This document shows positions 42,928-59,733 of a stretch of 64,000 bases of DNA, piece after piece. The notes below the pieces were generated by a model. The model had not been told where the DNA came from. It made no database searches and saw only the letters and a list, made by a program, of their open reading frames with translations. Position 1 is the stretch's first letter. Each line of letters opens with the position of its first letter. The stretch is from Anaerocolumna cellulosilytica (GTDB lineage Bacteria > Bacillota > Clostridia > Lachnospirales > Lachnospiraceae). Made by a program: the position numbers and the translations under genes. The stretch is taken from contig NZ_AP023367.1 in NCBI RefSeq assembly GCF_014218335.1, positions 1,799,501 to 1,863,500 on the forward strand. Reading direction: 5' to 3'.

Positions 42928-45900
42928 ATGTCCGAGGATAATCTTAAGGGAATGGATAAGTTCAATATAAATTTATATGAGGAGGAGTGGATGGTACAAA
43001 GTCCGAACACCGGGCAGAGCATAAAAGCAGAAGATACAGTTTTAATATTCGGACAAACAGATACATTAATTTATAACAATAAAAGCACCGCAGAAAATAG
43101 TATAACTGTATATAAAGGTACCCAATTTACATATAAGAATGATAAAGAATATGAAATAGAACCGGACAAATATGAAGACTATATAAATTTAATAGAAGAA
43201 ATAGGCAGGAATGGGTTTTTGGTAAATACGATTATTTTTGACTGGATAGTGGAGGACATGGAAGGGTATTATGCCGGAATTGATAATATTACAAAAGGAC
43301 AGGGTTCTGTTTATGATTTTATAAACACTCCGCTGGCAAAAGGAATCTATCGCTTGTTTTACTTAATAAAAGGTTTAATACAGACTAAATGGAAAGCAAT
43401 AGCACGGATTTTGATAATTAATGAAAAGAAAGAAGAGATTCCGAATCCTTTTTATGAAATCATTGCAAACTACGGTAAATCACTTAGATTTATCTTACCG
43501 GAGGTTAAAATTACAACCATTCACATTCATGACAGAGTGCAATTAACAGATGCTATAAATAATGAATTACGGAATACAGAGCAGGAATTAGAAGTATTTT
43601 ATAGCAAGAATAAGAGGTATGTTAGAAATTACAAAAAATGGTCTGTTTCTGATGAAAAAAATAAACAGGCCGCTAACGTTCCTATAAAAGAAGGTTCTGT
43701 ATTTTTAATTACAGGTGGTGCCGGAAAGCTTGGGCGGTTATTTGCTACCTTCTTAGGGAAAGAATTTAAAGCGAAGGTGGTGCTGGTAGGACGTTCTGAA
43801 CTAGACTATGAAAAAGAAACCTCAATAAGGGAACTGGAACTGGCCGGAATACAGGTGATTTATTGTAAGGCGGATGTAACTGATAAAGCGCAGATGGAAC
43901 AGGTAATTCTTCATACAAAAAATAGATTCGGTGAAATACATGGTGTTATCCATGCAGCCGGTATAGTCAGCAATCAGTTACTGCCTCAAAAAGAGTATGT
44001 GGACTTTAAGGAAACTTTACAAGTCAAAATGCTTGGTACGATTGTACTTGATGAAGTGACAAAGAAGGAACCCCTTTCCCATTTTATACTTTTTTCCTCA
44101 ACTGCATCTATTTTAGGGGATTTTGGACAGTGTGATTATTCTTTGGGCAACCGGTTTCTTGACTGCTACAAGGAATTAAGAAAAGTATTACAGAGGAATG
44201 GGCTACACAGAGGTAAGACCATTACCATTAACTGGCCCTTATGGGAAGAGGGAGGGATGCACCAGGAGAAGGAAACAGAAACATTATACTTAAAAACCTC
44301 GGGTTTAGGATATTTGCAAAACGATTCTGGTCTTCGTGCTTTTGGCCAGATACTGGCTCTACAGAAGGAGCAGGCAATCGTATTTTATGGCAAGGAAAGA
44401 AACATTACCAATCTTTTACGCTGCAAAGATAATTCATCTAACATACCGGAGGAAGAGAAGTGCAGTACTTCTTTGCAGCCAATGGAACAAAAGGGTACTC
44501 TTAAGGCGTTTGTGGAACAGGATTTAAGAGCTATGTCAGCAGAAATATTAAAGGTAAAAGTAGAAGAGATTGAGTATGATATTAACTTTGGAGAATTTGG
44601 GTTTGATTCCATCTCCTTAAAGATATTTGTTAAAAAAATTGGAGAGCAGTATAAGGTTGAGATATCCCCCGCGGTCTTTTTTTCAGCGAATACGGTAAGA
44701 AGCCTGACAGACTATTTATTAGAAAGGTTTAGCAATGAGTTAGAACAATATTATCTACAATCGGAGCTTCTTATAAAGGAAGTAAAAAAGAGCTCATTAC
44801 AAGCAGATTTGATAAGGGAAGAGATTAAAATAGCAAATGCTACAAAGAAGAACAAAAGCTCTAAAGCAGGTACAATTCCCGGGCGCAGGGGAGCTTTGGA
44901 GCCTTTTAAAAAGCATTTAAAATCCCTAAATAATTACACGGATACATCTACAGAGCGAGCGGAAAATCATAGAGAACCGATTGCAATTATAGGAATGGAA
45001 GGTGTTTTTCCCGGTTCCAAAGATGTAAACCAATTCTGGGATAATATACGCCATGCCAGAGACTTAATAACTGAAATTCCGAAAAGCAGATGGGACTGGA
45101 GGGCGTATTACAGTGAAAATCGCCTGTCAAAGAATAAATCCAATTCAAAATGCGGCGGCTTTATTGATGACGTTGATAAGTTCGATGCTTCATTTTTTAA
45201 TATCTCTCCTATGGAAGCAGAACTAATGGACCCACAGCAGCGGTTACTGCTGCAATCTGTTTGGAAAGCTGTTGAAGATGCTGGATATAAGGCTTCTGAA
45301 TTATCCGGCAGACAAATCGGAGTTTACATGGGTGTCCAATTTAATGATTATCAGGAACTGTTACAGGAATCAGAGGAATTAAAGCCACAGATTGTGACAG
45401 GGAATGCCCATGCGCTTTTGGCAAACAGGATTTCGTATTTTATGAATTTTAATGGACCCAGTGAAGCCATAGATACCGCTTGTTCAGGTAGCCTTATTGC
45501 TATACATAATGCAGTAAAATCCATTCAAAGAGGAGAAAGTGAAATGGCGGTGGCAGGGGGGGTCAGCCTGATGCTTTCCCCAAGAACCTTTTTAAGTGCA
45601 AGTAAATTAGGTGTATTGTCAGTAGATAACCGTTGTAAAACCTTTGATGCAGATGCGAACGGTTATGTCAGGGGTGAGGGGATAGGTGTTATTCTGTTAA
45701 AGCCACTGAAGCAGGCAATAAGGGATGGTGATAATATTTATGCAGTTATTCGGGGCAGTGCGCAAAATCACGGTGGCAGAGCCAATTCCTTAACAGCTCC
45801 AAACGCAGATTCCCAAGCAGGAGTAATATCGGCAGCTTATAAGGATGCGGGTATTACTCCAGATACAGTTACCTATATTGAAGCCCATGGGACGGGTACG

Positions 45901-48900
45901 GAACTTGGAGACCCGGTGGAAATTGAAGGGTTAAAGAAAGGCTTCCGGGAGGGAAATAAAGCGAAGGAGAGCATCGTAAGTAATCCCCGGTGTGGTCTGG
46001 GCTCTGTTAAACCTAATATCGGGCATTTAGAACCGGCAGCAGGAGTTGCAGGAATCATCAAGGTTATAATGGCCATGAAGAATGAAGAAATCCCTCCAAG
46101 TATCCATTTTAAGAAATTGAATCCCTACATTCATCTTGAGGATACACCTTTTTATATTGTACAAAAAGCGCAGATTTGGAATCGTCTTACTGATAAGGAG
46201 GGAAAGGAAATCCCCCGCCGGGCAGGGGTGAGTTCCTTCGGATTTGGTGGTGCCAATGCCCATATTGTACTTGAAGAATATAAAGAAACAAAAAGACAGG
46301 AGAGAGAAAAACAAGAGGGAGAAAGACAAGAGCAGATTATTATCTTATCTGCCAAAAATGAAGAGAACTTAAAGCAGTATGCGAAAGACCTGTTAGAGTT
46401 TTTAAAAGGAACTTCCCTCACCGGTACCTGTGATAGCTTTGATAGGATTGCGTATACCCTCCAGTCCGGCAGGGAGGCAATGAACGAACGCCTTGCTGTT
46501 ATAGCAGGTGACCTGGCTGAATTACGTTATCTCCTTCAGGAATATATAAAGGGTAAGAACCATCCTAACTTGCTATGTAACAATGCAAAAAATACCCAGA
46601 ATAGTTTAGAACTATTGTATGATGACGAAGACGCAAGCGGAATGATAGAACAGTGGATAAGTAAAAGGAAATTCCTTCGTCTGGCTAAATTATGGACATC
46701 CGGTTATGAAATCAATTGGAAGCTATTTTATAAGGACAGACCGGTTGGTCGAATTTCATTACCAACGTACCCCTTTACAAAACAACGGTATTGGTTTGCA
46801 GAAGGTTCTAAAAGTCTAAACAGTGCCAGAACTAATATCCAGACACTGGATACATTAATAGATAAAACGGAATATCTTAGGAGCTTTCATGGAGAGTTAG
46901 TATTTAGTAAAGTTTTAAGCAAAGAGGATACCATTGTTAAGGAGCATGTAATAAAAGGGCAAAGCATTTTTCCTGGTGTTGGCTATTTAGAAATGGCTTT
47001 TCAGGCAGCAGCATTAATTTATAATAGCAGAGAACTTAAAATAAGCAGACTCTTTTGGCTAAACCCTCTAATCGTTAGTAACGCAAAGGTAAAGTTGAAT
47101 ATTTGCCTGAAAAAGGCAGAAGACCATGTAGTATTTGAAGTAAAGGAAGACACGGCCTCTGGGTCTACTGTTTATGCAAAAGGAGAAATCCGTCAAAAAG
47201 CCGGCGGGTATGAAAGAGAGCATATTTCAATACAGAATATTAAGGATAGGTGCAGTAGGGTTATAAAGGGAGAAGAGCTTTATACCTACTATCAAAAGGA
47301 CGGTATTGATTATGGGGATTACTTTAGAGGAATTGAAGAAGTCTATGTAAATACTACAGAAGCGTTAGGAAGAATTCGTATACCGGCTGGCAGTGGACCC
47401 GACTTACATACCTATACTCTTCATCCTACCTTATTAGATAGTGCTTTGCAAATTATAAGCTGCATAGCAGGGAGTGAAGGAAGAATCAATTTGCCCTTTA
47501 CAGTAGGTTACTTCGAAATCATAAAACCTTTGGAAGTATCTATGTATTCTTATGCTAAGGAAGACGGCAGCAACAGCTATGAAGTATCCCTTATGAATGA
47601 CGAAGGCGAAATATGTGCAAAATTTCATAAATATGTATTAAAGGAATTACGGGAGAGGGTTCCTCCTTTATATTATCAACCCCAATGGAGATTGTCACCT
47701 GTGTCTAATGAACTTTTGAGTCAGAAGAACAGTGAGGCAGAGCTTTCTTCTAAAGAGGCCGCTTTGATTATTTATACGAAGACAGGAGAAAAACTGGCTG
47801 ACTTACTAGCAAAAAAGCATAAAAAGGCAGTGCGTATCTTACTGGGCGAGAAAAATAGCAGAAAAGTTAAGGACTTATGGGAGGTTAAATATGATGATCC
47901 AACCGCTCTTAGTGACACTATAGCTAAGGTGAAAGAAAAGTACAGCATTTATTTTCTGGGAGGAATAACACAAGAGAATGGAGAGACACATACTCTTTTA
48001 GAGATACAAAAAAACCAGGAATATGGAGTCATTAATTTATTCCGACTGGTAAAAGCCCTTGAAAAAAATACTCTTTATAAGACTTCTCTTACACTAAAAG
48101 TCATAACAAATAACGTGTATTCTTTGGAGGATAGTAAGGTAATATTCCCTGATTCGTCCAGTATTCATGGTTTTGTTAAATCACTTGCCAAAGAATACCC
48201 AGGATACAAAATAAGTTCCGTTGATATTGATTTAGCAGAACCAGAAAATTTAAATATCTTAGATGCGTTCTCCTTGGAAAAACTGGAGCAGGTACTTATA
48301 TCTGCCATAACAGAACCCCATAACTCTAACGGCGAAACAGTTGTATATCGGAATAACAACCGATACGAAGGTGTGATAAAAGAAATACAGATGCCGCCAG
48401 TAACCAAAAGTGTGTTTAAAGACAAGGGCGTTTATATTATTGTTGGCGGAGCCGGAGGTGTTGGTTTGATTCTTAGCCGCTATTTAGCCAGAACTGTTAA
48501 AGCCAGGCTTTTCTTAATTGGAAGGAGTCCATACAGTGACAGCAAAAATAAGTATTTCAAAGAAATAGAGGAACTTGGCGGTACTGTAACTTACTATCAG
48601 GCAGATGTTACAGATTTTTTGAGTATGGAAGCTGCAATGAGTAAAGTAAAAGCCATTTATGGAGAAAAGATTAACGGTGTGTTTCATTCAGCAATTGTAC
48701 CGGCAGATAAAATGATACATAACATGGAGGAAGAGGAATTTAGAGCTGCCTTTGACCCTAAAGTGTATGGAAGTGTCGTGTTACATTCTCTTTTAAAAGA
48801 GGAAAATTTGGACTTTTTTGCATTTTTCTCATCGACCTCCTCCCAGGTAGGAATGCCGGGACAAAGTAATTATGTCAGCGGTCTAAACTTTAAGGATAAT

Positions 48901-50736
48901 TTCGCAGCCTATATCAATAGAAGAACCTCCTACCCTGTGAAAGTATTTAATTGGGGATACCTTGGCATCGGCTCCAGTGCAGAGGAGGAATTCCGGAGTA
49001 AAATGAAAAGAATAGGAATCCATTCCATTGGTGAACAAGAAAGTATGGAAATTGTTGAACGAGTCTTAGCAAACACAGTAAACCAGGTATTCTTATTAAA
49101 AGCAGAAAACCGTGTCCTAAAACAAATGGGAATCATTCAGGATAAAAGCAGTGCTATAAGTGCAGCAAAAGAGCTTACGATTGCAGCAGCAGATTCGGTA
49201 GTTGATGTAAAGGTCTGGTTAGGGGCGTATTTAAAAAATATCTTAACAGATATTCTTAAATGCGATAGGGATAGTATTGATAATGAGACTGACTTTGCTG
49301 ACTTTGGTGTGGATTCTATATTAAGTTTTCAAATTCATGCTGAAATTGAAAAAAGCTTTGGGGATCTGCCTGCTACCCTATTTCTAAATAACTCCAATAT
49401 CAATGAGTTGGTTACGTACTTTCTTGAAAATTATGGAGAAACAGTAAGCGTATTATATGGAAAGTCTTCTATGAACCAAAAGCTGGCAGAAAGCATTGTG
49501 ATTAGTAATGAGAGAGACGAGCAGATACAAGGGATGGACAACAATTTGTCCGTTGTTTTTACTGCACAAGAAAGACAAGAACGAATTTGTAACTATATAA
49601 GGGATAGAATTGCTAATACACTAAAATGTGACGCAGATAGTATTGGATTTGAGGAAAGCTTTAAAGAATATGGGATTGATTCTATCTTAGGATTTCAGTT
49701 ATACGGTGATATAGAGGCAAGTTTTGGTGATATACCTACCACTCTTTTTTTAGAGTATGATACTATCAGAGATCTTGTTGCCTATTTGATACAAAATAAA
49801 GGAGCAGAAATAGACAAGTTTATACAGGATGAAAGACTTGGTATAGATATGGCGAAACAGATTGTTACATCAAAGCCCGCTAGAGAGGAACTAAAACTTA
49901 CAGATTTAATAAAAACAAAGTCAGCGGTTATTGAATTGCCCATTGAATTAGATACCTTTCTTGTAGAGATTGATTCTGATACTAAGATGGAGGTAAGTAT
50001 GAAAGGAAGCGGAGAGCCTGTTTTGATTATACCGGGTTTAGCGGTAACTTCTATAATCTGCTCCTATCAATTTATTGAACTATCTTTAAAATATCAGGTA
50101 ATAGGTATAAATCTTCCCGGTCATGGACGAAGTGACGGAATTGAGGATCTTTCATTTAAAGGGATTAGCAAAGTTCTGGTTAAAGTCCTTGATAAACTCC
50201 ATATCCATCAGCCCATCCATGTGGTAGGCGGCTCCTATGGCGGAATTATCGCTCAAAACATTGCCCTTGCTTATACAGATAGAGTTAAGTCATTAACACT
50301 CATTGGAAGTATTACAGCTACAAAATTCGAAGGAATAGCCCAGATATTTTCTTTTACAGAAGCTGTCTCCAAGGATTTTGAAGCGGTTAAATTAAAGGCT
50401 GTATCAGAGGATGTGCTGGAGAATATGGATTATTATTTTGAAATATATAAGCACAGTCAATCAACCAATAGTCCATTATTATTAAAGTATCTTGAGTTAA
50501 TGAAAATAAAAATGACAACAAGAGAAGTACTAGAGCTGATTCAGGTTCCGACGTTGATTCTGGTGGGTGCCATTGATACAGTTGTAGAGCCGGAGGAATC
50601 AAAGCTGATTCATTCTAAAGTCAAGAATTCCAGATACGTAGAAATTGCAGACGGAGGACATTTTATACATCTTACGCATCATGAAAAAGTAAGTAATGCA
50701 ATTCTTGATTTTCTGCAAACCTATGAGACTTTGTAA
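42928..50736 (+). CDS. Trans-AT PKS subunit 7: KR-ACP-KS-DH-KR-ACP-ACP-TE
   Basis: 2602 residues; strong AGGAGGAG site at 42916-42923. The first KR (glycine loop from 263, Tyr in CDYSLGN) completes module 8; the B-type Asp is Asn here (AGIVSN), so it may set the opposite alcohol configuration. ACP Ser561. KS9 Cys852 (DTACSGSL). An intact DH (His1340 in HVIKGQSIFPG; DSALQ) and a second KR (loop from 1840, IVPAD) follow. Tandem ACPs carry Ser2130 (GVDSILSF) and Ser2252 (GIDSILGF). The C-terminal alpha/beta-hydrolase thioesterase (about 2345-2600) has Ser2436 in GGSYGG, Asp2550 and His2578 in GGHF, and would release the chain by hydrolysis or macrolactonisation. Being the only TE, it marks this as the last subunit. 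Confidence 0.94.
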   Translation: MSEDNLKGMDKFNINLYEEEWMVQSPNTGQSIKAEDTVLIFGQTDTLIYNNKSTAENSITVYKGTQFTYKNDKEYEIEPDKYEDYINLIEEIGRNGFLVNTIIFDWIVEDMEGYYAGIDNITKGQGSVYDFINTPLAKGIYRLFYLIKGLIQTKWKAIARILIINEKKEEIPNPFYEIIANYGKSLRFILPEVKITTIHIHDRVQLTDAINNELRNTEQELEVFYSKNKRYVRNYKKWSVSDEKNKQAANVPIKEGSVFLITGGAGKLGRLFATFLGKEFKAKVVLVGRSELDYEKETSIRELELAGIQVIYCKADVTDKAQMEQVILHTKNRFGEIHGVIHAAGIVSNQLLPQKEYVDFKETLQVKMLGTIVLDEVTKKEPLSHFILFSSTASILGDFGQCDYSLGNRFLDCYKELRKVLQRNGLHRGKTITINWPLWEEGGMHQEKETETLYLKTSGLGYLQNDSGLRAFGQILALQKEQAIVFYGKERNITNLLRCKDNSSNIPEEEKCSTSLQPMEQKGTLKAFVEQDLRAMSAEILKVKVEEIEYDINFGEFGFDSISLKIFVKKIGEQYKVEISPAVFFSANTVRSLTDYLLERFSNELEQYYLQSELLIKEVKKSSLQADLIREEIKIANATKKNKSSKAGTIPGRRGALEPFKKHLKSLNNYTDTSTERAENHREPIAIIGMEGVFPGSKDVNQFWDNIRHARDLITEIPKSRWDWRAYYSENRLSKNKSNSKCGGFIDDVDKFDASFFNISPMEAELMDPQQRLLLQSVWKAVEDAGYKASELSGRQIGVYMGVQFNDYQELLQESEELKPQIVTGNAHALLANRISYFMNFNGPSEAIDTACSGSLIAIHNAVKSIQRGESEMAVAGGVSLMLSPRTFLSASKLGVLSVDNRCKTFDADANGYVRGEGIGVILLKPLKQAIRDGDNIYAVIRGSAQNHGGRANSLTAPNADSQAGVISAAYKDAGITPDTVTYIEAHGTGTELGDPVEIEGLKKGFREGNKAKESIVSNPRCGLGSVKPNIGHLEPAAGVAGIIKVIMAMKNEEIPPSIHFKKLNPYIHLEDTPFYIVQKAQIWNRLTDKEGKEIPRRAGVSSFGFGGANAHIVLEEYKETKRQEREKQEGERQEQIIILSAKNEENLKQYAKDLLEFLKGTSLTGTCDSFDRIAYTLQSGREAMNERLAVIAGDLAELRYLLQEYIKGKNHPNLLCNNAKNTQNSLELLYDDEDASGMIEQWISKRKFLRLAKLWTSGYEINWKLFYKDRPVGRISLPTYPFTKQRYWFAEGSKSLNSARTNIQTLDTLIDKTEYLRSFHGELVFSKVLSKEDTIVKEHVIKGQSIFPGVGYLEMAFQAAALIYNSRELKISRLFWLNPLIVSNAKVKLNICLKKAEDHVVFEVKEDTASGSTVYAKGEIRQKAGGYEREHISIQNIKDRCSRVIKGEELYTYYQKDGIDYGDYFRGIEEVYVNTTEALGRIRIPAGSGPDLHTYTLHPTLLDSALQIISCIAGSEGRINLPFTVGYFEIIKPLEVSMYSYAKEDGSNSYEVSLMNDEGEICAKFHKYVLKELRERVPPLYYQPQWRLSPVSNELLSQKNSEAELSSKEAALIIYTKTGEKLADLLAKKHKKAVRILLGEKNSRKVKDLWEVKYDDPTALSDTIAKVKEKYSIYFLGGITQENGETHTLLEIQKNQEYGVINLFRLVKALEKNTLYKTSLTLKVITNNVYSLEDSKVIFPDSSSIHGFVKSLAKEYPGYKISSVDIDLAEPENLNILDAFSLEKLEQVLISAITEPHNSNGETVVYRNNNRYEGVIKEIQMPPVTKSVFKDKGVYIIVGGAGGVGLILSRYLARTVKARLFLIGRSPYSDSKNKYFKEIEELGGTVTYYQADVTDFLSMEAAMSKVKAIYGEKINGVFHSAIVPADKMIHNMEEEEFRAAFDPKVYGSVVLHSLLKEENLDFFAFFSSTSSQVGMPGQSNYVSGLNFKDNFAAYINRRTSYPVKVFNWGYLGIGSSAEEEFRSKMKRIGIHSIGEQESMEIVERVLANTVNQVFLLKAENRVLKQMGIIQDKSSAISAAKELTIAAADSVVDVKVWLGAYLKNILTDILKCDRDSIDNETDFADFGVDSILSFQIHAEIEKSFGDLPATLFLNNSNINELVTYFLENYGETVSVLYGKSSMNQKLAESIVISNERDEQIQGMDNNLSVVFTAQERQERICNYIRDRIANTLKCDADSIGFEESFKEYGIDSILGFQLYGDIEASFGDIPTTLFLEYDTIRDLVAYLIQNKGAEIDKFIQDERLGIDMAKQIVTSKPAREELKLTDLIKTKSAVIELPIELDTFLVEIDSDTKMEVSMKGSGEPVLIIPGLAVTSIICSYQFIELSLKYQVIGINLPGHGRSDGIEDLSFKGISKVLVKVLDKLHIHQPIHVVGGSYGGIIAQNIALAYTDRVKSLTLIGSITATKFEGIAQIFSFTEAVSKDFEAVKLKAVSEDVLENMDYYFEIYKHSQSTNSPLLLKYLELMKIKMTTREVLELIQVPTLILVGAIDTVVEPEESKLIHSKVKNSRYVEIADGGHFIHLTHHEKVSNAILDFLQTYETL

Positions 50737-50747
50737 GGAGGTGGGAC

Positions 50748-51599
50748 ATGCCGGTTCAAGAAATAAAGCAGAAGTGGGACCGATTATGGGAAGAGGGAGT
50801 TATACATTTTTACCCGGAAGAGAACAAAGCACTTTCTATAGAGGATGAATACTTTCCTTTGTTCGTAGAGTATGCACCGGAAAGGGCAAAACGTTTTATG
50901 GGTGAAAAAAATGAGCACTTACCGCTGGGAGCAGAAATCTGGAAGCGGAATGATATGTTATTTGAATTTGACAATCTGGTAATGCTTGCAAATAACAGAC
51001 CAGTTAGTCGGTATCATAGTATTTTATGCTCAAGGGAACACCATCCACAGAATGATTTATCCCTTAAGGAAATACAAGAAGTCTCTGCATTAGCAGAAAG
51101 ATACGGATTTCGGTCATTTTTGAATCTTTTGGGGACGGCAGCAACACTGAACCATTTTCATACCCAGGTGCTTTTCGAGCCATTTCATTTAGAGGAGTTA
51201 CCCTGTGCAGTTCATGGGAATGTAGGAAGGATTCCACAGTATCCGGGAGGAAATATACTCATTACCGGTAATCTTAAAAAACGTTGCAGCCTGGTGTTTG
51301 ATTTGATGAATAGACTTACAAAGTCAGATTATTTTTATACGGTTATAAAGAGTGGCAGAAGAAGCGAAACACCTTTGTTTTCGCTTCTTTTTTGGATGGA
51401 TAAAATTTTATTTATCCCCAGAAAAAAAGAGGTGTCATATTTTAAGGATTCCATGGTGGGAGGTCTGGAATTAAGCGGGCATTTTCTTATTGCCGCACCT
51501 ATTGCCCCTCATAATACATTTGAAGGAATGAATCGTGAGAAACTAATAGACATTATCAAAGATGTAACCTTTAGCCAGGAGGATATGTACCGGCTATAA
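50748..51599 (+). CDS. HIT/GalT-superfamily nucleotide phosphorylase- or nucleotidyltransferase-like protein
   Basis: 283 residues. The best functional cue is the His136-Phe-His138-Thr-Gln140 motif in NHFHTQV, followed by FEPF. This matches the NHLHFQ-type active site of GDP-hexose phosphorylases and the wider GalT/Ap4A phosphorylase branch of the HIT superfamily, where the second His carries the nucleotidyl group. It is soluble, with no signal or membrane segment. A perfect TAAGGAGGTG site overlaps the stop of the last PKS gene, so it is in the PKS operon. With the next three genes it forms a cassette after the thioesterase gene. A role in activating or recycling a sugar or phosphate donor for the glycosyltransferase is inference; the exact substrate cannot be read. 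Confidence 0.72.
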   Translation: MPVQEIKQKWDRLWEEGVIHFYPEENKALSIEDEYFPLFVEYAPERAKRFMGEKNEHLPLGAEIWKRNDMLFEFDNLVMLANNRPVSRYHSILCSREHHPQNDLSLKEIQEVSALAERYGFRSFLNLLGTAATLNHFHTQVLFEPFHLEELPCAVHGNVGRIPQYPGGNILITGNLKKRCSLVFDLMNRLTKSDYFYTVIKSGRRSETPLFSLLFWMDKILFIPRKKEVSYFKDSMVGGLELSGHFLIAAPIAPHNTFEGMNREKLIDIIKDVTFSQEDMYRL

Positions 51600-51611
51600 A
51601 ATACTAAAACG

Positions 51612-51672
51612 AGTCAATTGCAAAACAATAAGTTTAGAGGTTCTGACATAGAGTACCATTTTGCAATTGACT
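51612..51672 (+). repeat. Perfect 14-bp inverted repeat with 33-bp loop between the HIT and CofD-like genes
   Basis: Arms at 51612-51625 (AGTCAATTGCAAAA) and 51659-51672 are exact reverse complements. The stem lies 12 bases after the HIT gene stop and 30 bases before the next ATG. There is no T-tract, so it may be an RNA processing or stability element dividing the PKS mRNA from the tailoring genes. Confidence 0.6.
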
Positions 51673-51702
51673 GCTAATAAATCAGTTTAAAGGAGGAAAT
51701 TT

Positions 51703-52959
51703 ATGTTGAAAGTAGCGGTTTTTTCAGGCGGCAGAGGTTCTAATACGTTGGTTAAAGAATTGGTAAAAGATGAAACAATTAAGTTATCATTAATTGTGAA
51801 TGCGTATGATGATGGTAAGTCAACAGGTGAAATCCGTGATTTTTTCAATATGCTTGGTCCATCGGATATCAGAAAAAATCAGGAGAACCTCATGTCTAGT
51901 AATTTTACGAATTATAACATCTGGGCAGACATCTTTAAGTACCGGTTTGGAGAAGATATCAGACATGAACAGTGTATTCAGATATTAAATGACTTTGTTA
52001 CAGGTAAAAGCAATCAAATCGACCATATCATTATTGCTGACAGTGACCTTGAAAATCTTATTAAAAAGTTATTAAACCAGTTCCTTACTTCATTGGAGAT
52101 ATATGAAAAAGTTCTTGGCAGAGAATTTATTTTTTCGGATTGCTCTTTATCCAACTGCCTCTATGCAGGGGCATATGAAATACTGGATAAAGATTTTAAC
52201 AAGACCATTAATTTGTTCAATCTGCTTTTGCACGTCCGAGGAGATGTTGTACCTACTAATCTGGAGAATAAGAAACTGGTAGGTATCAGAGAAACCGGTG
52301 AAATCTGTTATGATGAAGCAGAAATTGTAGAACTACGTTCCAGTGATAGAATCAGTGATATCTTTTTAATTGATGAATATCTGGATAAAGAACTTATTGA
52401 GAGTAAGTTTACTACCAGCAGGGAAAAAATCGATTATTTAAGACGAATTCAAAGTTATGTCTATGGAACTCCGGAAGCACTTCAAACCATCGCAGCGGCT
52501 GATATCATAATTTATGCGCCGGGCACACAGCATTCTTCGCTTTACCCAAGTTACATGACAATGGGCATACCGGAAGCCATTTACCAAAATACCAAGGCAC
52601 TGAAAGTATTCATCTGCAATATAGGAGAGGACTATGAAACCCCGGATTATACCGCCAGTGAATTTTTAACAAGCGCATATAAGTATTTAACTAGAAATGC
52701 AAAGCTGAAAATGCCTTTATCTGAATTTATTAATATAGCTTTAATTAATACCTCACGTTCTGTAAAGAAAGAGGATATACGCTATGTAGAGAATGATTTT
52801 TCGAAATTAGAAAAGCTGCCTATAAATATAGTATACGGTAAGTTTGAATCGGAAACGGATTTAGGGAAGCACGATGCGGTGACCACGGTATCAACTATAA
52901 CAGATATTTATTACAACCGGTTCTTTAAGGAATTATCCTATGAAATTAAAGTGGGATAA
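51703..52959 (+). CDS. CofD/YvcK-family protein
   Basis: 418 residues. The N terminus (VFSGGRGSNTLVKEL) is the glycine-rich start of the CofD/YvcK fold. AYDDGKSTGEIRDFF and LGPSDIR match the YvcK-type ADDGGSSGRLR and PPGDIR segments more closely than CofD proper. APGTQHSSLYPSY (about residues 269-281) matches the conserved C-terminal APGS..TS..P region. CofD transfers a phospholactyl group from a GDP-activated donor; YvcK proteins bind UDP-sugars. In a PKS cluster next to a glycosyltransferase, a donor-binding or phospho-transfer role is plausible but unproven. AAAGGAGG lies upstream of the ATG. The end overlaps the next gene by 20 bases. Confidence 0.78.
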   Translation: MLKVAVFSGGRGSNTLVKELVKDETIKLSLIVNAYDDGKSTGEIRDFFNMLGPSDIRKNQENLMSSNFTNYNIWADIFKYRFGEDIRHEQCIQILNDFVTGKSNQIDHIIIADSDLENLIKKLLNQFLTSLEIYEKVLGREFIFSDCSLSNCLYAGAYEILDKDFNKTINLFNLLLHVRGDVVPTNLENKKLVGIRETGEICYDEAEIVELRSSDRISDIFLIDEYLDKELIESKFTTSREKIDYLRRIQSYVYGTPEALQTIAAADIIIYAPGTQHSSLYPSYMTMGIPEAIYQNTKALKVFICNIGEDYETPDYTASEFLTSAYKYLTRNAKLKMPLSEFINIALINTSRSVKKEDIRYVENDFSKLEKLPINIVYGKFESETDLGKHDAVTTVSTITDIYYNRFFKELSYEIKVG

Positions 52960-53599
52960 GAAAAAATATGTCATATTTGACTTTGACGGAACCATTGCGG
53001 ACACAAACCGTCTTCACAGAGCAGCCTTTCTTGAGATTTTTAAATCCTTAGGCATAGCAGAGTTTGAATATGAATTATACATGGGCAGAAAAACAAGAGA
53101 AGTATTTAAAGAGTTCTTACAATCTAAGTCAGTTTCTAAAACGGAGAAAGAAATAATAGCCCTTACTGACAGGAAGCAAAGTCTTGTAAGGAAGCGGATG
53201 ACAGAAGAAGTAGAGGCCTATGAAGGTGCAATAGAGTTTATCCGGTTACTAAGGGATAAAGGTAAAATTTTGTCGGTAGCGACATCCTCTTCCAGAATAG
53301 GCGTTACCTTGGCATTAAAGAAATTAGGGATTTATAATGACTTTCACTTTATTATTACCGGTGATGATGTAAAAAAAGCAAAGCCTTCGCCGGAAATTTA
53401 CAAAAATGCATTGCAATTAGCCAATATGAAGCCACAGGAGGCAATTGTTATTGAAGATTCTCTTAGCGGTTCTCTGGCAGCCTCAGGTGCGGATATAGAA
53501 GTAATAATTGTTAATAACAAAGAGCTAAGGGGTCAATATTATTGTACCGATTTTATCTGTCTGGCAGAGGATTTTTGTGAGTATCTATCTGATAGGTGA
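52940..53599 (+). CDS. HAD-superfamily hydrolase, beta-phosphoglucomutase-like
   Basis: 219 residues. Motif I FDFDGT puts the nucleophile at Asp14 and the acid/base at Asp16. A helical cap follows (about 20-90), then motif II ATSSS, motif III KKAKPSPEIY and motif IV VIEDSLSG. The cap type and KPSP motif place it in the beta-phosphoglucomutase/phosphatase subgroup. It could interconvert sugar phosphates for donor synthesis or remove a phosphate after transfer. The ATG lies 20 bases before the stop of the CofD-like gene with AAGGAA eight bases upstream, so the two are translationally coupled and probably act in one pathway. Confidence 0.85.
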   Translation: MKLKWDKKKYVIFDFDGTIADTNRLHRAAFLEIFKSLGIAEFEYELYMGRKTREVFKEFLQSKSVSKTEKEIIALTDRKQSLVRKRMTEEVEAYEGAIEFIRLLRDKGKILSVATSSSRIGVTLALKKLGIYNDFHFIITGDDVKKAKPSPEIYKNALQLANMKPQEAIVIEDSLSGSLAASGADIEVIIVNNKELRGQYYCTDFICLAEDFCEYLSDR

Positions 53600-53699
53600 A
53601 GCGATTTCGTGTAATTTAATATCAGTGTGTGGTATCAAAAGCACTTATTCAAATCCTACAGTTTATTGGTAAATTTGGTAGAAAGAAGGAGTATTTTTT

Positions 53700-54956
53700 A
53701 TGGGAAAAATAGCGATTGCGGTTATAGGTACTCACGGTGAAGTAAGACCTTTATTGGCACTGGCAATTGAGCTTAAAAAAGCCGGGCATGAAGTAATAGT
53801 ATGTGCCCCGCCAAATGAAAAGGCATGGATAACCAGTTATGGCATGGAATTTTGTTCTACAGGCTGCAATATAAACGGTCTTATCGGCAATTTAAACGGA
53901 TATATGGGTCATCCGGTACGTTTGTTAAAAGCGGTAAAACAAACTTTACATAGTATTATTGATGGACAATTTGAATTAAAAGACAGGATAAAGGATGCAG
54001 ATTTAATCGTTGGCAGCGGAGAACCCTTCGCCGTTCCTTCCATTGCCGAAAAATACGGTATTCCTTTTGTATTTCTTAACCTGGTAACCCAGTTCATGCC
54101 ATCTTCAAAATATCCGCCAACGGTAATACCCTGGCAGAATTTACCCAGATGGTTGAACCGGATACTCTGGCGTCTTGTTAATTCCTTGATTAACCTGTCT
54201 CTGGTAAAAATACTGAATGAACAGCGTGAAAAACTTTTATTAAAACCGGTTAAAGATATCTATGAGCATATACTGGGGAGTTTTAAAACCTGTATTATTG
54301 CAGTGAATGAAATACTGGATAAAGTACCAAAGTATAATTTTAATTATATTCAGACGGGATTATGGCATGTACCTGAAGTAGTTGAAGAAGAGATAGAGCC
54401 AGGATTAATAGAATTCTTAGAAAGCGGTCCTCCTCCGGTGTATATCGGTTTTGGAAGTATGAGTGACCCGAATCCCCAGGAAACCAGCAAAATAATTGAA
54501 GAGACGATAAATATCTTAGGCTGCAGGGCTATTATTTCAAAAGGGTGGGCAGATCTCTGCAAGAATATTGATGTTAATAACACTTATATGATTGGATATA
54601 TTCCGCATTATAAGCTATTTCCCAAAGTGGCGGCCGTTGTTCATCATGGAGGTGCAGGAACTGTATATACAGCGGCGTGGGCAGGTGTTCCTCAGGTTTT
54701 AATCCCCCATATGCTGGACCATTATTATCAGGGAGCCCTATTACATAAGAAAAAGTTAATACCAAGAGCCATAAGCCGTTCCAAATTATCCGGTAAAAAA
54801 TTAGCAAGTGCCATTAGAGAAGCCTTAAGCAATGAAGAAATAATAACTAACAGTGCAAGGATTGGGGAGGAATTACGGAGGATTGATAAAGAAGGAATAA
54901 ACAAGGCGGTAGAAACCCTTGAACAGGTTCTAAGCGGGCATGGGAGTTTAAGTTGA
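53700..54956 (+). CDS. GT1-family (UGT/macrolide-type) glycosyltransferase
   Basis: 418 residues with the GT-B fold of family 1. The acceptor half begins with GTHGEVRPLLALAIELKKAGHEV. The donor half carries the signature VVHHGGAGTVYTAAWAGVP (His315-His316) and HMLDHYYQG, where NDP-sugars bind. It resembles macrolide and sterol glycosyltransferases, and is cytoplasmic (no signal). A GAAGGAG site precedes the ATG. Being in the PKS operon, it most likely glycosylates the polyketide, either as the final tailoring step or as reversible self-protection. The sugar is unknown; no deoxysugar biosynthesis genes are in view. Two hairpin elements follow its stop. Confidence 0.88.
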   Translation: MGKIAIAVIGTHGEVRPLLALAIELKKAGHEVIVCAPPNEKAWITSYGMEFCSTGCNINGLIGNLNGYMGHPVRLLKAVKQTLHSIIDGQFELKDRIKDADLIVGSGEPFAVPSIAEKYGIPFVFLNLVTQFMPSSKYPPTVIPWQNLPRWLNRILWRLVNSLINLSLVKILNEQREKLLLKPVKDIYEHILGSFKTCIIAVNEILDKVPKYNFNYIQTGLWHVPEVVEEEIEPGLIEFLESGPPPVYIGFGSMSDPNPQETSKIIEETINILGCRAIISKGWADLCKNIDVNNTYMIGYIPHYKLFPKVAAVVHHGGAGTVYTAAWAGVPQVLIPHMLDHYYQGALLHKKKLIPRAISRSKLSGKKLASAIREALSNEEIITNSARIGEELRRIDKEGINKAVETLEQVLSGHGSLS

Positions 54957-55038: not shown

Positions 55039-55116
55039 GTTGAAAAAAACATTATCAACATCCTGATCTGAATGTGTGCAAGTGCTGACAGCACTATGGC
55101 ACACAGATGGGAGTTT
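55039..55116 (+). repeat. Structured 78-bp intergenic element, copy 1, ending at the ECH1 ribosome site
   Basis: A TTGAAAA-type stem (from 55039) is followed by a nested hairpin: TGTGTGC pairs with GCACACA, and inside it AGTGCT pairs with AGCACT around GAC. The element ends in GATGGGAGTTT, which supplies the ribosome site of the ECH1 gene. A second copy is at 55882-55961. Changes between copies mostly keep the stems. Confidence 0.75.
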
Positions 55117-55119
55117 AAT

Positions 55120-55881
55120 ATGGAATATCAGACAATCAGGGTACAGTGGCAGGAGAAGATATGCAAGATTCAGATTTTCAGACCGGATGATAAGAATACC
55201 ATTAATAATCAAATGGTAGAGGAATTCTATGAGGTTTTGACATATTGTGAGGATAGAGCCAGCATAATTGTATTGGAAGGGTTTATAGAATTTTTTTGCT
55301 TTGGAGCGGATTTTAAGGAAGCATATAATGGAATTGTTAATAAGACAGGCGTTAATCACTCGGATAAACTATATCAGGTGTGGTTAAAGCTTGCGACAGG
55401 ACCATATATCACGATATCCCATGTTAAGGGAAAGGTGAATGCAGGGGGAATAGGTTTTGTAGCGGCAAGTGATATAGTATTAGCTGACAATACCGCAGAG
55501 TTTAGTTTGTCTGAATTATTGTTTGGGTTGTTTCCGGCCTGTGTGCTGCCATTTTTAATTCGGCGAATCGGATTTCAGAAAGCCCATTATCTTACTGTTA
55601 TGACCCAGGCGGTATCTGTTTCTAAAGCATATGAGTGGGGATTAGTAGATGCCTGGGAAGAAAAGAGTGATTCTTTGCTTCGCAGGCATTTGCTTAGGCT
55701 GGAACGGTTACCTAAGTCAGGAATTATGGACTATAAGAAGTATATGAGTGAAATCTATAACCATTTATCAGAAGATAGAAAGACAGCAGTAGAAGCAAAT
55801 CGCAGGATGTTTTCCAATCCTCAGAATGTAGACTGGATTTGTCAATTTGTAGAAAGCAGTAAACTGCCATGGGAGCGATGA
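55120..55881 (+). CDS. Enoyl-CoA hydratase-fold dehydratase ECH1 of the beta-branching cassette (PksH-like)
   Basis: 254 residues from ATG 55120 (MEYQTIRV). This start is chosen because GATGGGAG lies about eight bases upstream, while an earlier in-frame ATG at 55072 would translate the conserved RNA element. The crotonase-fold oxyanion segments are FCFGADF and NAGGIGF, followed by DIVLADNTAEFSLSELLFGL and FPACVLPFLIRRIG, the pattern of PksH-type proteins. It would dehydrate the HMG-like ACP intermediate before ECH2 (fused in subunit 4) decarboxylates it. It sits directly before the HMGS gene; the two share a duplicated 5' RNA element. Confidence 0.9.
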   Translation: MEYQTIRVQWQEKICKIQIFRPDDKNTINNQMVEEFYEVLTYCEDRASIIVLEGFIEFFCFGADFKEAYNGIVNKTGVNHSDKLYQVWLKLATGPYITISHVKGKVNAGGIGFVAASDIVLADNTAEFSLSELLFGLFPACVLPFLIRRIGFQKAHYLTVMTQAVSVSKAYEWGLVDAWEEKSDSLLRRHLLRLERLPKSGIMDYKKYMSEIYNHLSEDRKTAVEANRRMFSNPQNVDWICQFVESSKLPWER

Positions 55882-55961
55882 GTTGAAAAAGAAGTTTTTT
55901 CAACATTCTGATTTGTAGGTGTGCAAGTGCAGACAGCACTATGGCATACAGATGGGAGTTT
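55882..55961 (+). repeat. Structured 80-bp intergenic element, copy 2, upstream of the HMGS gene
   Basis: Starts right after the ECH1 stop with a TTGAAAAA/TTTTTTCAA stem. The same nested hairpin as at 55039-55116 follows, with core GTGTGCAAGTGCAGACAGC, and it ends in GATGGGAGTTT. Here that ribosome-site-like tail is 27 bases before the HMGS ATG, and a separate GAAGGAG (55974-55980) serves the start. Confidence 0.75.
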
Positions 55962-55987
55962 GACATAATATATGAAGGAGACCAACT

Positions 55988-57247
55988 ATGAAAAGTGTCG
56001 GGATAGAAGCAATAAATTTTTTTGGAGGCCTTGCGTATCTTAATGTAAAGGAATTGGCTGAATATAGAAAGTTAGATACCACCAGATTTGAAAACTTATT
56101 AATGGAAGAAAAAACAGTGGTTTTGCCCTATGAAGACCCCATCACCTATGGGGTGAATGCAGCAAAACCAATAATTGACAGCTTAAGTGAAGAAGATAGG
56201 GAAAAAATAGAGATGGTAATTACTTGTACAGAGTCCGGAATTGATTTTGGTAAATCCATTAGTTCCTATATTCATCATTATCTTGGATTAAATAGAAACT
56301 GCCGTCTGTTTGAATTAAAAAATGCCTGCTACTCCGGAACTGCTGGTTTTCAGATGGCCATTAATTTCATTTTGTCAGGAAGCTCACCTGGAGCGAAAGC
56401 TTTAGTCATTGCTACAGATATCACAAGATTTGTGGCAGTAGATGGGGGAGAAGCATTAACAGCCGACTGGTCGTTTGCAGAACCCAGCTCCGGAGCAGGG
56501 GCAGCAGCAATTTTGGTTAGTGATAATCCACTTATCTTTCAAATTGATGTAGGTGCTAATGGTTATTATGGTTATGAAGTGATGGATACCTGCCGTCCTA
56601 TACCTGATAGTGAGGCAGGTAATTCCGATTTATCGCTTTTATCCTACCTGGACTGTTGTGAACAATCTTTTCTCCAATATCAAAAGAGGGTTGAGGGAGT
56701 AGATTATAAGAGCACCTTTGATTATCTTGCCTTTCATACACCCTTTGGAGGCATGGTGAAGGGGGCACATCGAAGCATGATGCGTAAATTGGCAAAAGCC
56801 AGTCCTGCTGAAATAGATGAGGATTTTAATATACGAGTCATGCCGGGGATGAAATATTGCAAACGAGTTGGTAATATTATGGGGGCAACTATATTCTTGT
56901 CATTGCTTGGTTTGCTGGATTATGGTAACTTTGACAGTCCGAAACGGATTGGTTGTTTTTCATATGGCTCCGGATGCTGTTCTGAGTTCTATAGTGGTGT
57001 TGTTACGGCAGCAGGGCAAAGATTACAGCAAAAGAACAGAGTTGAAAAACAATTGAATTCCAGATATAAACTGAATATGGAGTTATATGAGATTCTATTA
57101 AAGAAAAGCGGACTGGTGAAGTTTGGGACACGCAATACAAAGCTGGATTTTGAGGTAGTACCCGGTTTGGTTCAGAAAAGCAGAGAAGAGAAAATATTAT
57201 ATCTGGATCAAATTAATGAGTTCCATAGAGAGTATATCTGGTTATAA
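55988..57247 (+). CDS. HMG-CoA-synthase-like enzyme of polyketide beta-branching (PksG-like)
   Basis: 419 residues. It condenses acetyl from the free donor ACP with the beta-keto group of the chain on an acceptor ACP. The nucleophile is Cys114 in NACYSGTAG; the catalytic His lies in FHTPFGGMVK; the C-terminal SYGSGCCSEF matches the family's GSG substrate loop. Length and motifs match PksG rather than archaeal HMGS. GAAGGAG seven bases before the ATG defines the start. It is the last gene of the plus-strand cluster, followed by a strong bidirectional terminator. Together with the ACP and KS at 5112-6661, ECH1 and the fused ECH2, it completes a beta-methylation set. Confidence 0.94.
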   Translation: MKSVGIEAINFFGGLAYLNVKELAEYRKLDTTRFENLLMEEKTVVLPYEDPITYGVNAAKPIIDSLSEEDREKIEMVITCTESGIDFGKSISSYIHHYLGLNRNCRLFELKNACYSGTAGFQMAINFILSGSSPGAKALVIATDITRFVAVDGGEALTADWSFAEPSSGAGAAAILVSDNPLIFQIDVGANGYYGYEVMDTCRPIPDSEAGNSDLSLLSYLDCCEQSFLQYQKRVEGVDYKSTFDYLAFHTPFGGMVKGAHRSMMRKLAKASPAEIDEDFNIRVMPGMKYCKRVGNIMGATIFLSLLGLLDYGNFDSPKRIGCFSYGSGCCSEFYSGVVTAAGQRLQQKNRVEKQLNSRYKLNMELYEILLKKSGLVKFGTRNTKLDFEVVPGLVQKSREEKILYLDQINEFHREYIWL

Positions 57248-57367: not shown

Positions 57368-57967
57368 TTAGATCTGTTTTATACATTTCCTTTTCTCTGT
57401 TAATACTGATTTGATTGCCCAGATTCTCAAGCAGGAGGTAAATACAGATACTCCCGTAATAGTATACATTAAAAGATAGGTAATTTTTAAATCAGAGTGC
57501 AGGAAACAATAATCCACAAAGATTATAAATGGAAGGATATATAAAAGTACAGCCAGGTATCTGCCGAGTTTATCAAATTTCGGTCGGAATTTCTGTGCCT
57601 TGTAATCAGTTTCCATTTTGGAAGTAAGAATAAAATTAAAAAAGCGGTCTAAGATAACAATAAGAAACCAAACCGGAATCTGTGTACGAAGCATTATAAC
57701 AATATGCATGGAAATAACAAAAAAGAAGTCGGCAAATAGGTCAAATAGAGCACCAAATCTAGTCTCCAGCCCAAATCTTCTGGCAATCTTCCCATCAAAA
57801 AAATCACTTAGACAAAGCACTATGTATAACAATACAAAATACATATAGCTATTGGTACCAGTACTCCTAATAAAAATGTTGTTTGTAAGAAACAGAAGAG
57901 CAGGTGTGCCTGCCACTCGCAGAAAGGTTAAGTAATTGGCTCCATTTTTAAGAAATAAGCTCCTCAT
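57368..57967 (-). CDS. CDP-alcohol phosphatidyltransferase family membrane protein
   Basis: 199 residues, integral membrane, with several hydrophobic segments. The full family motif is present: Asp55, Asp58-Gly59, Ala62-Arg63, Gly72, Asp76 and Asp80 (SDFFDGKIAR then GALFDLFAD). Such enzymes move a phosphatidyl group from a CDP-activated lipid to an alcohol (glycerol phosphate, inositol, serine and others); the acceptor cannot be told here. The start is ATG 57967 with AGGGGG six bases upstream; it shares a TGATG junction with the stop of the preceding gene, so they are coupled. It is the last gene of a minus-strand operon that also encodes a second member of the family. Confidence 0.88.
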   Translation of the reverse strand: MRSLFLKNGANYLTFLRVAGTPALLFLTNNIFIRSTGTNSYMYFVLLYIVLCLSDFFDGKIARRFGLETRFGALFDLFADFFFVISMHIVIMLRTQIPVWFLIVILDRFFNFILTSKMETDYKAQKFRPKFDKLGRYLAVLLYILPFIIFVDYCFLHSDLKITYLLMYTITGVSVFTSCLRIWAIKSVLTEKRKCIKQI

Positions 57968-58542
57968 CAAGAACCCCCTAATGTAATGCCTAAGTCATAG
58001 GCTCGCTTAACTTCACTTTCTTCCTGGTTTGATAAGAATTTTTCCAGATAATCTGCCTTCCGGTAAAGGAGTTTACTTAATTCATCAAGTTCAGAAGAAT
58101 TATCGGTCATCATTCCTGTTGAATAAATTAAAATCTTACTGTTATCAATATTTTTAATAGCGGAAACATAATCTCCAAGCACCGGTGATAATTCGCCATT
58201 ATAGACAGTAGTTCCAAACGCTACAATTTCATATTCTTCAAGATTCTCAGATAAAAAGTCTCCGGGATAATTTATGGTTACCTCATATCCTGATTCATTC
58301 AAACCCTTTGCAAGGTTAGTTGCAATCGTTGTTCCGTATTCTGAACGGCCTGGTTGATAGATAATCAACGCATTGCGGTTACTGTCTGTTCCGGGTAATA
58401 TGATTTCATTGCTCTTATGTTTAACATTCCCGGCACTGGTAACGTATAAGGTTCCTCCTAGTGTCCCAAGACCTATAACTACAATACAAATAATAAGTAT
58501 TAGGATTGCCTTTTTTCTACCTTTTCTGTTTGATTTTCCCAT
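57967..58542 (-). CDS. Membrane-anchored flavodoxin-like protein
   Basis: 191 residues. A basic N terminus (GKSNRKGRKK) is followed by one hydrophobic segment (about 12-33), then a flavodoxin-like alpha/beta domain (from about 52). The phosphate-binding loop region reads YQPGRSEYGTT, and AFGTTVYNG and YSTGMM follow. By the positive-inside rule the domain would face outside the membrane, which is unusual for a flavodoxin; alternatively it is cytoplasmic with an odd anchor. A TAGGAG site precedes the ATG, and the gene follows the soluble flavodoxin by three bases. The electron partner is unknown. Confidence 0.75.
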   Translation of the reverse strand: MGKSNRKGRKKAILILIICIVVIGLGTLGGTLYVTSAGNVKHKSNEIILPGTDSNRNALIIYQPGRSEYGTTIATNLAKGLNESGYEVTINYPGDFLSENLEEYEIVAFGTTVYNGELSPVLGDYVSAIKNIDNSKILIYSTGMMTDNSSELDELSKLLYRKADYLEKFLSNQEESEVKRAYDLGITLGGS

Positions 58543-58545
58543 AGC

Positions 58546-59691: not shown

Positions 59692-59733
59692 TTGCATGTG
59701 CCTCTCTTTCAAACAGTATTTTATATGAAGTAA

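What the first reader, a model, noticed from the sequence alone, without database searches (positions are those of the whole stretch)
50748..54956. Unusual post-PKS cassette: HIT/GalT-like, CofD/YvcK-like, HAD mutase/phosphatase and GT1 glycosyltransferase
Four genes directly follow the TE gene; two are translationally coupled. A glycosyltransferase is common in such clusters, but a CofD/YvcK-fold protein and a HIT nucleotide phosphorylase-like protein are not part of any polyketide tailoring route I know. They could make or recycle a sugar-nucleotide from a beta-sugar phosphate for the GT, or put a phospho-linked group on the polyketide that the HAD enzyme trims. This is the best candidate for an undescribed system here.
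Basis: partly seen in the sequence, partly recalled or inferred. Interest (0 to 1): 0.82.

Follow-up and report, generated by a model that had tools for sequence, protein, structure and literature searches.

The report
Probable sugar-donor module serving a polyketide
Next to a bacterial polyketide synthase lies a small set of genes that also turns up, rearranged, in surface-sugar clusters of distant bacteria, and it probably makes an unusual activated sugar, perhaps a five-ring form of glucose, that is then attached to the polyketide.

Summary
The four genes are real, co-oriented and at the stated places. The CofD gene is not a housekeeping YvcK: it belongs to a separate subfamily whose relatives lie in loci of Bacteroidota, SAR86, Prochlorococcus, sphingomonads and Clostridia, many of them polysaccharide clusters. 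Of 44 such loci without this PKS, 43 carry a MobA/GlmU-like nucleotidyltransferase near CofD and 38 a HAD or HAD-like domain; 20 control YvcK-type loci carry neither. In the five polyketide clusters (window and four relatives) the nucleotidyltransferase is missing and the HIT/GalT-like gene is there instead. The core stays while the glycosyltransferase changes, so I read it as a sugar-donor module feeding the GT. One Clostridia version (GT2 synthase, CofD-HAD, nucleotidyltransferase) resembles the published description of the Mycoplasma fermentans glucofuranan locus, and a common GT2 partner elsewhere resembles galactofuranosyltransferase GlfT1. Best specific guess: an NDP-hexofuranose, perhaps NDP-glucofuranose, made without UDP-galactopyranose mutase. 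Donor module about 0.7; furanose about 0.45; order of steps speculative. The HIT label rests on a motif. Ten library searches found no description of the module beyond the Mycoplasma remark.

The parts
50748..51599 (+). HIT/GalT-like protein (HFHTQ at residues 136-140), probable nucleotidyl-transfer enzyme; present where other loci have the NTase
   Evidence: ORF; motif invariant 5/5; 3r6f HIT E 0.04; found in no other place searched than PKS clusters; no profile match
51703..52959 (+). CofD/YvcK-fold protein of a distinct subfamily (YDDGKSTG...LGPSDIRK...PGTQHSSLYPSY)
   Evidence: PF01933 129.8 bits; AlphaFold pLDDT 94, pTM 0.92; Foldseek to YvcK E about 1e-21 and CofD 3c3e E 2.5e-8; subfamily alignment; tree
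52940..53599 (+). HAD (beta-PGM/CbbY-like subfamily) phosphatase or mutase, overlaps the CofD gene by 20 bases
   Evidence: PF13419 128 bits; D14, H26, K79, S116, K148, E172, D173 conserved 19/19 and D16 18/19; below bPGM cut-offs
53700..54956 (+). GT-B glycosyltransferase, GtfB-like; presumed user of the donor
   Evidence: Pfam; 1iir GtfB E 2.5e-48; present in 5 of 5 PKS clusters (F14)
42928..50736 (+). last PKS gene (three ACP matches and a C-terminal alpha/beta-hydrolase/TE), directly upstream, same orientation; context, not part of the module
   Evidence: homologous PKS ORF upstream of HIT in L039, L040, L041, L063 (F12)
55072..57247 (+). enoyl-CoA hydratase and HMG-CoA-synthase-like genes (probably a beta-branching cassette), conserved after the GT; context
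   Evidence: F15/F16 in 5 of 5 PKS clusters

Best explanation
A dedicated activated-sugar module has been taken into a trans-AT polyketide cluster. The CofD-fold protein and the HAD together deliver an unusual sugar 1-phosphate. The HIT/GalT-like protein then puts a nucleotide on it, probably by exchange with an ordinary NDP-sugar; in other lineages a MobA/GlmU-like nucleotidyltransferase does this step. The GtfB-like glycosyltransferase moves the sugar to the polyketide. The most likely sugar is a hexofuranose, best guess glucofuranose. A possible order, inferred only: the CofD-fold enzyme phosphorylates the anomeric oxygen of the furanose form of a hexose phosphate from a nucleoside-diphosphate donor; the HAD removes the other phosphate; HIT or NTase makes NDP-hexofuranose; the GT uses it. 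Shown here: the gene set, its recurrence, the presence of HIT where the NTase is missing, and conserved nucleotide-site residues. Inferred: every enzymatic step and the sugar.
For: Recurrence: 48 loci from one scan of genome contigs; NTase within 4 kb in 43 of 44 non-PKS loci (the exception, L054, ends at the contig end); HAD or HAD-like domain adjacent or fused in 38 of 44; all three in 37 of 44. Control: 0 of 20 YvcK-type loci carry NTase, HAD or HIT relatives. HIT present and NTase absent in 5 of 5 PKS clusters. Elsewhere in those five genomes the best NTase-profile match is 40-51 bits in four and 114 bits, a GlmU-like ORF, in G824; two genomes with the module gave 228 and 286 bits, but their NTases are in the profile. 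HIT: 1 of 291 class genomes (own only), no plasmid match, 4 of 20 genomes holding the module, all four with the PKS. The acceptor changes (polyketide; EpsG-type polymerase loci; processive GT2 synthases) while the core stays. Furanose clue 1: L077, L081, L082 and L086 hold a GT2 synthase with DxD, QxxRW and three C-terminal hydrophobic segments, then CofD-HAD, then NTase. PMC11658790 (section 2.2 and passages) reports for the M. fermentans beta-(1->6)-glucofuranan locus a synthase of Clostridia kin with DxD, QxxRW and a three-helix channel, CofD-family pieces and an NDP nucleotidyl transferase proposed for UDP-glucofuranose synthesis. Clue 2: GlfT1 matches 17 of 17 GT2 partners scanned. Clue 3: UDP-galactopyranose mutase is absent from 13 of 17 genomes with a GlfT1-like partner and from 6 of 7 with the synthase operon (matched to loci by hand). 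In Lachnotalea (L041) a GalE-like gene precedes the GT. GlmR/YvcK, the nearest fold relative, makes UDP-GlcNAc from UTP and GlcNAc-1-P (PMC10128056, passages).
Against: The furanose link rests on one chemically defined polymer whose locus I know only from the paper's text, not its sequence, and the paper calls the CofD pieces pseudogenes although the polymer is made. GlfT1 matches fall below that family's cut-off where the score is shown (86.9 against 330 bits), and EpsD also matches 17 of 17, more weakly. The PKS cluster has a GtfB-like GT, not a GlfT1-like one, and all five PKS genomes do have a UDP-galactopyranose mutase elsewhere. Six of 44 loci show no HAD (L043, L052, L060, L065, L066, L068). 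The fused domain passes a HAD profile cut-off in only 2 of 8 members scanned (L070, L073); for the others the call is by motif. A subfamily-like CofD on an Acaryochloris plasmid (L033) has neither NTase nor HAD nearby. The HIT assignment is motif-level. Several genomes in the mutase count are MAGs or single-cell genomes, likely incomplete.
Confidence: 0.45

Rival explanations
1. Same module logic, but the donor is an unusual pyranose or other sugar and the CofD-like protein is itself a sugar-1-phosphate nucleotidyltransferase, as reported for GlmR.
For: GlmR of Listeria makes UDP-GlcNAc, and a triple mutant including its D40/D41 pair loses most activity (PMC10128056 passages); the matching D36 is invariant and D37 is D or N in 36 of 36 rows. 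The Asn that contacts ligand in YvcK (N217 in B. halodurans, PMC5482804 passages) corresponds to invariant N306 (hand-mapped).
Against: It would make the NTase present in 43 of 44 loci redundant; the third GlmR residue (N198) appears to fall on S/T283 (hand-mapped from an offset).
Confidence: 0.22
2. CofC/CofD logic: NTase or HIT activates a phospho-acid or phospho-alcohol as NDP-X; the CofD-like protein transfers phospho-X to a sugar or to the polyketide; the HAD trims a phosphate.
For: CofC activates 2-phospholactate with GTP and CofD transfers it (PMC8764529, passages); three of three NTase partners scanned pass the MobA-like profile PF12804, a fold CofC shares (recalled).
Against: Does not explain the GlfT1-like and glucofuranan-synthase-like partners; the described glucofuranan carries no other substituent (PMC11658790 passage).
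Confidence: 0.13
3. The GT is an ordinary self-protection glucosyltransferase using UDP-glucose, and the CofD/HAD/HIT genes serve another tailoring step unrelated to it.
For: Best NCBIfam match of the GT is the rifamycin-inactivating Rgt (160 bits, cut-off 800); in L041 other genes separate HAD and GT.
Against: The gene directly before the GT in L041 is a GalE-like sugar-nucleotide epimerase (166 bits, cut-off 262); the GT follows HAD in the window and in 3 of 4 relatives (in L063 a small reverse ORF lies between).
Confidence: 0.12
4. The CofD-like protein is a YvcK/GlmR-type regulator or a stray housekeeping copy.
For: Fold match to YvcK.
Against: Below the YvcK cut-off (123 against 196 bits); separate clade; other neighbours than 20 YvcK-type loci; 147 of 150 genomes of the window's family lack any CofD-family match at E 0.001.
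Confidence: 0.04

Closest known systems
Mycoplasma fermentans PG18 glucofuranan locus (PMC11658790; section 2.2 and passages read)
   Same: Synthase of Clostridia kin, CofD-family protein (two pieces) and NDP nucleotidyl transferase together; the authors suggest a role in UDP-glucofuranose synthesis. Clostridia operons such as L082 have the same kinds of genes.
   Different: A membrane homopolymer synthase instead of a GtfB-like GT; no HIT mentioned; the HAD is not named there (in my loci it is the C-terminal part of the CofD fusion). Sequences not compared.
YvcK/GlmR (UPF0052, TIGR01826)
   Same: Fold, DD pair, ligand Asn; GlmR has uridyltransferase activity (PMC10128056).
   Different: Below cut-off, separate clade, motifs GKSTG/GPSDIRK/PGTQxSSL instead of GGSSG/PPGDVRN/PGSLYTS (2hzb), other neighbours.
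CofC/CofD (FbiD/FbiA) of coenzyme F420
   Same: A MobA-like NTase next to a CofD-fold partner in the non-PKS loci.
   Different: Only 11-14% identity to solved CofD/FbiA chains in the Foldseek list; glycan or polyketide context.
GAK system CofD-like protein (TIGR04357)
   Same: Second-best NCBIfam match, 109.9 bits.
   Different: Far below the cut-off of 340; the other GAK genes were not looked for.
UDP-galactopyranose mutase route to furanosyl donors
   Same: Would deliver a hexofuranosyl nucleotide to GlfT-like enzymes.
   Different: No mutase in 13 of 17 genomes with a GlfT1-like partner; the window's genome has one, but outside the window.

Membership tests
CofD family (PF01933) | Profile score over 30 bits and CofD fold | tested here: met
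   129.8 bits; model pLDDT 94, Foldseek to YvcK and CofD structures
YvcK/GlmR (TIGR01826) | Score over curated cut-off 196 | tested here: not met
   123.4 bits
YvcK/GlmR | Ligand and catalytic residues | tested here: inconclusive
   D36 and N306 invariant 36/36, D37 D/N, K389 (24 of 28 rows with a residue) in place of Arg300, R11 (30/36) in place of Thr13; hand-mapped
CofD proper (2-phospholactate transferase) | Activity on an NDP-linked phospho-acid and Fo; F420 genes | not tested
   only the fold was compared
GAK system CofD-like (TIGR04357) | Score over cut-off 340 | tested here: not met
   109.9 bits
HIT superfamily, GalT branch | HxHxQ motif | tested here: met
   HFHTQ invariant 5/5; motif as GalT-branch mark in PMC10069634 (passage)
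HIT superfamily, GalT branch | Profile or fold match | tested here: inconclusive
   no Pfam/NCBIfam match, 3r6f E 0.04, model failed, hhalign no better than controls
beta-phosphoglucomutase (TIGR01990) | Score over cut-off 189.4 | tested here: not met
   95.2 bits; TIGR02009 114.9 against 153.35
HAD superfamily | Profile and catalytic residues | tested here: met
   PF13419 128 bits; D14 19/19, D16 18/19, S116, K148, E172, D173 19/19
GT-B antibiotic glycosyltransferases | EryCIII-like_C and Glyco_transf_28 domains | tested here: met
   56.3 and 46.8 bits over cut-offs 31.7 and 26.2
GlfT1 galactofuranosyltransferase (GT2 partner in non-PKS loci) | Score over cut-off 330 | tested here: not met
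   matches 17 of 17 members at E 1e-5; the one whose score is shown has 86.9 bits
NDP-hexofuranose pathway | Enzymes form NDP-hexofuranose | not testable with these tools
   needs purified enzymes

The most novel reading that the evidence does not exclude
A CofD-fold enzyme, a HAD phosphatase and a nucleotidyl-transfer enzyme (a GlmU/MobA-like one in glycan loci, a HIT/GalT-like one here) form a mutase-independent route to NDP-hexofuranoses, widespread in bacteria; in Anaerocolumna and Lachnotalea it feeds a GT that puts a glucofuranose on a polyketide.
Probability: 0.35. Interest if true: 0.87.

Novelty: new variant of a known kind. Interest (0 to 1): 0.7.

Why it matters
How bacteria make glucofuranosyl donors is open: PMC11658790 states that a complete glucofuranan pathway had not been described. 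This module offers a concrete three-enzyme hypothesis, gives a job to a CofD subfamily now named only after 2-phospholactate transferase or YvcK, and predicts an unusual sugar on an uncharacterised anaerobe polyketide. The natural presence of HIT where the NTase is missing is a ready test of which step each enzyme does.

Tried and rejected
Housekeeping YvcK: rejected on score, clade and neighbours. Beta-phosphoglucomutase: not supported; T/S stands where I recall Arg49 of the L. lactis enzyme (residue number and alignment from memory). CofD search with the single protein over the phylum mostly returned YvcK-type matches (335 of 398 genomes) and was uninformative. HIT-based scan of genome contigs found nothing, not even the PKS relatives found later. 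HIT fold: model failed, GalT profile comparison inconclusive. Plasmid YvcK-like genes of Agrobacterium and Sinorhizobium lie beside sugar-metabolism or phosphatase genes, not this module; L035 has a HAD nearby but no NTase. Pentofuranose PRPP route: considered (search listing and abstract starts only) and set aside; I did not search for those genes. A 114-bit NTase match in G824 proved GlmU-like, next to a Pth-like ORF (both names from memory). For L065-L069 the CofD extension aligns only 18-20% with the GT2 extension of L062, so only L062 (Pfam) and L064 (38%) are counted as GT2 fusions. Ten literature searches, some with capped listings (for example 10 of 429, 8 of 798), gave no account of the module except PMC11658790; the library lacks most subscription journals. 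The tree left out L080 and L085 and used 8 of the 20 control loci; its program warned of long branches.
Full report
WHAT IS THERE. Four + strand genes follow the last PKS gene: HIT-like 50748-51599, CofD-like 51703-52959, HAD 52940-53599 and GT 53700-54956; an enoyl-CoA hydratase and an HMG-CoA-synthase-like gene come next. The PKS gene ends with ACPs and an alpha/beta-hydrolase domain. The window lies in a single-contig 5.43 Mb genome. Its nearest named relatives are Anaerocolumna (two) and Clostridium sp. KNHs205 (CofD 88% identical) and Lachnotalea glycerini (68%), each with HIT, CofD and HAD after a PKS gene.

THE COFD-LIKE PROTEIN IS A SEPARATE SUBFAMILY. It passes Pfam CofD (129.8 against 30 bits) but fails the YvcK (123 against 196) and GAK (110 against 340) cut-offs. 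The model is good (pLDDT 94.2, pTM 0.92) and matches YvcK structures (E from 2e-21) and then CofD/FbiA (E 7e-9 to 1e-6). A tree of 56 rows (quick method, SH-aLRT only; 46 of the 48 loci, window, L033 and 8 of 20 control proteins; long-branch warnings) separates the subfamily from the YvcK rows (100), keeps the five PKS copies together (100) and places them beside the 20 short-form copies (85). Only 3 of 150 genomes of the window's family, the own one included, have any CofD-family match, so it is not a copy of a YvcK common in that family.

A RECURRENT MODULE. A scan with a two-sequence alignment (window and an Acaryochloris plasmid protein) gave 106 pattern matches, of which 48 were confirmed loci, L039-L086. 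I clustered the neighbours, then counted with tblastn and profiles. Four loci are PKS clusters; no relative of their PKS ORFs clusters in the other 44. Of those 44, 43 carry a nucleotidyltransferase (NTase) within 4 kb of CofD; L054 ends within 2 bases of the preceding GT2. Three NTases scanned (L042, L057, L082) pass the MobA-like profile PF12804, L042 also resembles GlmU, and R17, K24 and D106 are invariant in 19 of 19 aligned. A HAD like the window's lies near CofD in 21, and a HAD-like domain is fused to or directly behind CofD in 17 (38 of 44; none in L043, L052, L060, L065, L066, L068). That fused domain passes a HAD profile in 2 of 8 scanned (L070, L073; L072 just under). The motif G[ND]ExxxGx[DE] is in 15 of 15 fused proteins, and DxD[GD]T in 13 as scanned plus L072 as read. 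All three partners are present in 37 of 44. The profiles were built from some of these members, which match by construction; the first detection was by unsupervised clustering. A counter-example is the Acaryochloris plasmid member (L033), with no NTase or HAD nearby.

HIT WHERE THE NTASE IS MISSING. The window and the four PKS relatives have HIT and no NTase. In their genomes the best NTase-profile matches elsewhere are weak (40-51 bits) or, in G824, GlmU-like (114 bits). HIT was found in no other place looked: 1 of 291 class genomes, the own one; no plasmid; 4 of 20 genomes holding the module, all four with the PKS. Since the other groups of the CofD tree have the NTase, HIT looks like a replacement in the PKS lineage (inference). 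The HIT label itself is motif-level. GDP-galactose phosphorylase of the GalT branch carries HxHxQ and moves a nucleotidyl group (PMC10069634, passages read).

WHAT THE CORE DOES. The core stays while acceptor and GT change: a GtfB-like GT with a polyketide; a GlfT1-like GT2, GT4 and EpsG-type polymerase genes in short-form loci; processive GT2 synthases in the L077-L086 group. GT clusters F2/F4 are in 22 of 44 non-PKS loci; I did not check GTs in every other locus. This speaks for donor synthesis. Fusions point the same way: CofD-HAD (15 loci), CofD-GT2 (L062 by Pfam; L064 by alignment), and one 1007-aa ORF in a MAG (L083) holding synthase, CofD and HAD. In L041 a GalE-like gene precedes the GT.

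WHY A FURANOSE. (1) PMC11658790 (section 2.2 and found passages read; figures and supplements not seen) shows by NMR that M. fermentans PG18 makes beta-(1->6)-glucofuranan. The locus holds a synthase of Clostridia kin with DxD, QxxRW and a three-helix channel, two CofD-family pieces that the authors call pseudogenes, and an NDP nucleotidyl transferase they propose for UDP-glucofuranose synthesis. Synthases in L077, L081, L082, L085 and L086, and the fused one in L083, show QxxRW, DxD and three C-terminal hydrophobic segments by a simple hydropathy script; L084 is cut by the contig end, L079 is split in two ORFs, L080 begins at CofD. I have not compared sequences with M. fermentans. (2) GlfT1 matches 17 of 17 GT2 partners scanned, best E 8e-33; EpsD also matches 17, best E 2e-12; the one member shown in full scores 86.9 against GlfT1's cut-off of 330. 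(3) UDP-galactopyranose mutase is absent from 13 of 17 genomes with a GlfT1-like partner and from 6 of 7 with the synthase operon (genomes of L045, L054, L080 and L085 not searched; several genomes likely incomplete; handles matched to loci by hand). Against: all five PKS genomes have that mutase elsewhere, and their GT is not GlfT1-like.

MECHANISM. The fold's known chemistry is CofC/CofD transfer of a phospho-acid (PMC8764529, passages) and GlmR uridyl transfer (PMC10128056, passages). Residues: D36, R57, K58, R81, N306 and D310 are invariant in 36 of 36; D37 is D in 30 and N in 6; R11 is R in 30. By hand mapping, N306 corresponds to the ligand Asn217 and K389 to Arg300 of B. halodurans YvcK (residues from PMC5482804 passages); Tyr264 has no match. 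With a separate nucleotidyl-transfer enzyme present, the CofD-like protein more likely moves a phosphoryl-linked group than a nucleotide. I commit, with low confidence, to anomeric phosphorylation of a furanose-form hexose phosphate, HAD dephosphorylation, and nucleotidyl transfer by HIT or NTase. No step is shown.

NOVELTY. Ten searches of the held library (some listings capped) found no account of the module except the Mycoplasma remark. It is a new variant of a known kind (nucleotide-sugar donor pathways); if the furanose reading holds, it is a new route.

Noticed in passing
196-2265; L147 2614-5766: The ORF at the window start is the 3' part of a 1050-aa ORF of a class II lanthipeptide synthetase (LanM) upstream of the PKS genes.
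   Followed up: partly
window's genome and family: 147 of 150 genomes of the window's family have no CofD/YvcK match at E 0.001, so the YvcK/GlmR function common in the phylum may be lost there.
   Followed up: no
L083 385-3408: One MAG ORF of 1007 aa joins GT2 synthase, CofD and HAD-like domains; assembly not checked.
   Followed up: no
L041 11973-15499: In Lachnotalea an acyltransferase-like gene, a TetR-type regulator on the other strand and a GalE-like gene lie between HAD and GT.
   Followed up: partly
57368-60279: A minus-strand block of small ORFs after the cluster is conserved in L039, L040 and L063 (F17, F19-F22).
   Followed up: no
L073 11916-13538; L074, L076, L078: Four gut loci share a 343-540 aa protein near the CofD-HAD fusion; the one scanned (L073) is DRE-TIM aldolase-like. 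L070 has a KpsF/KdsD-like sugar-phosphate isomerase, with clustered relatives in L072 and L076.
   Followed up: no
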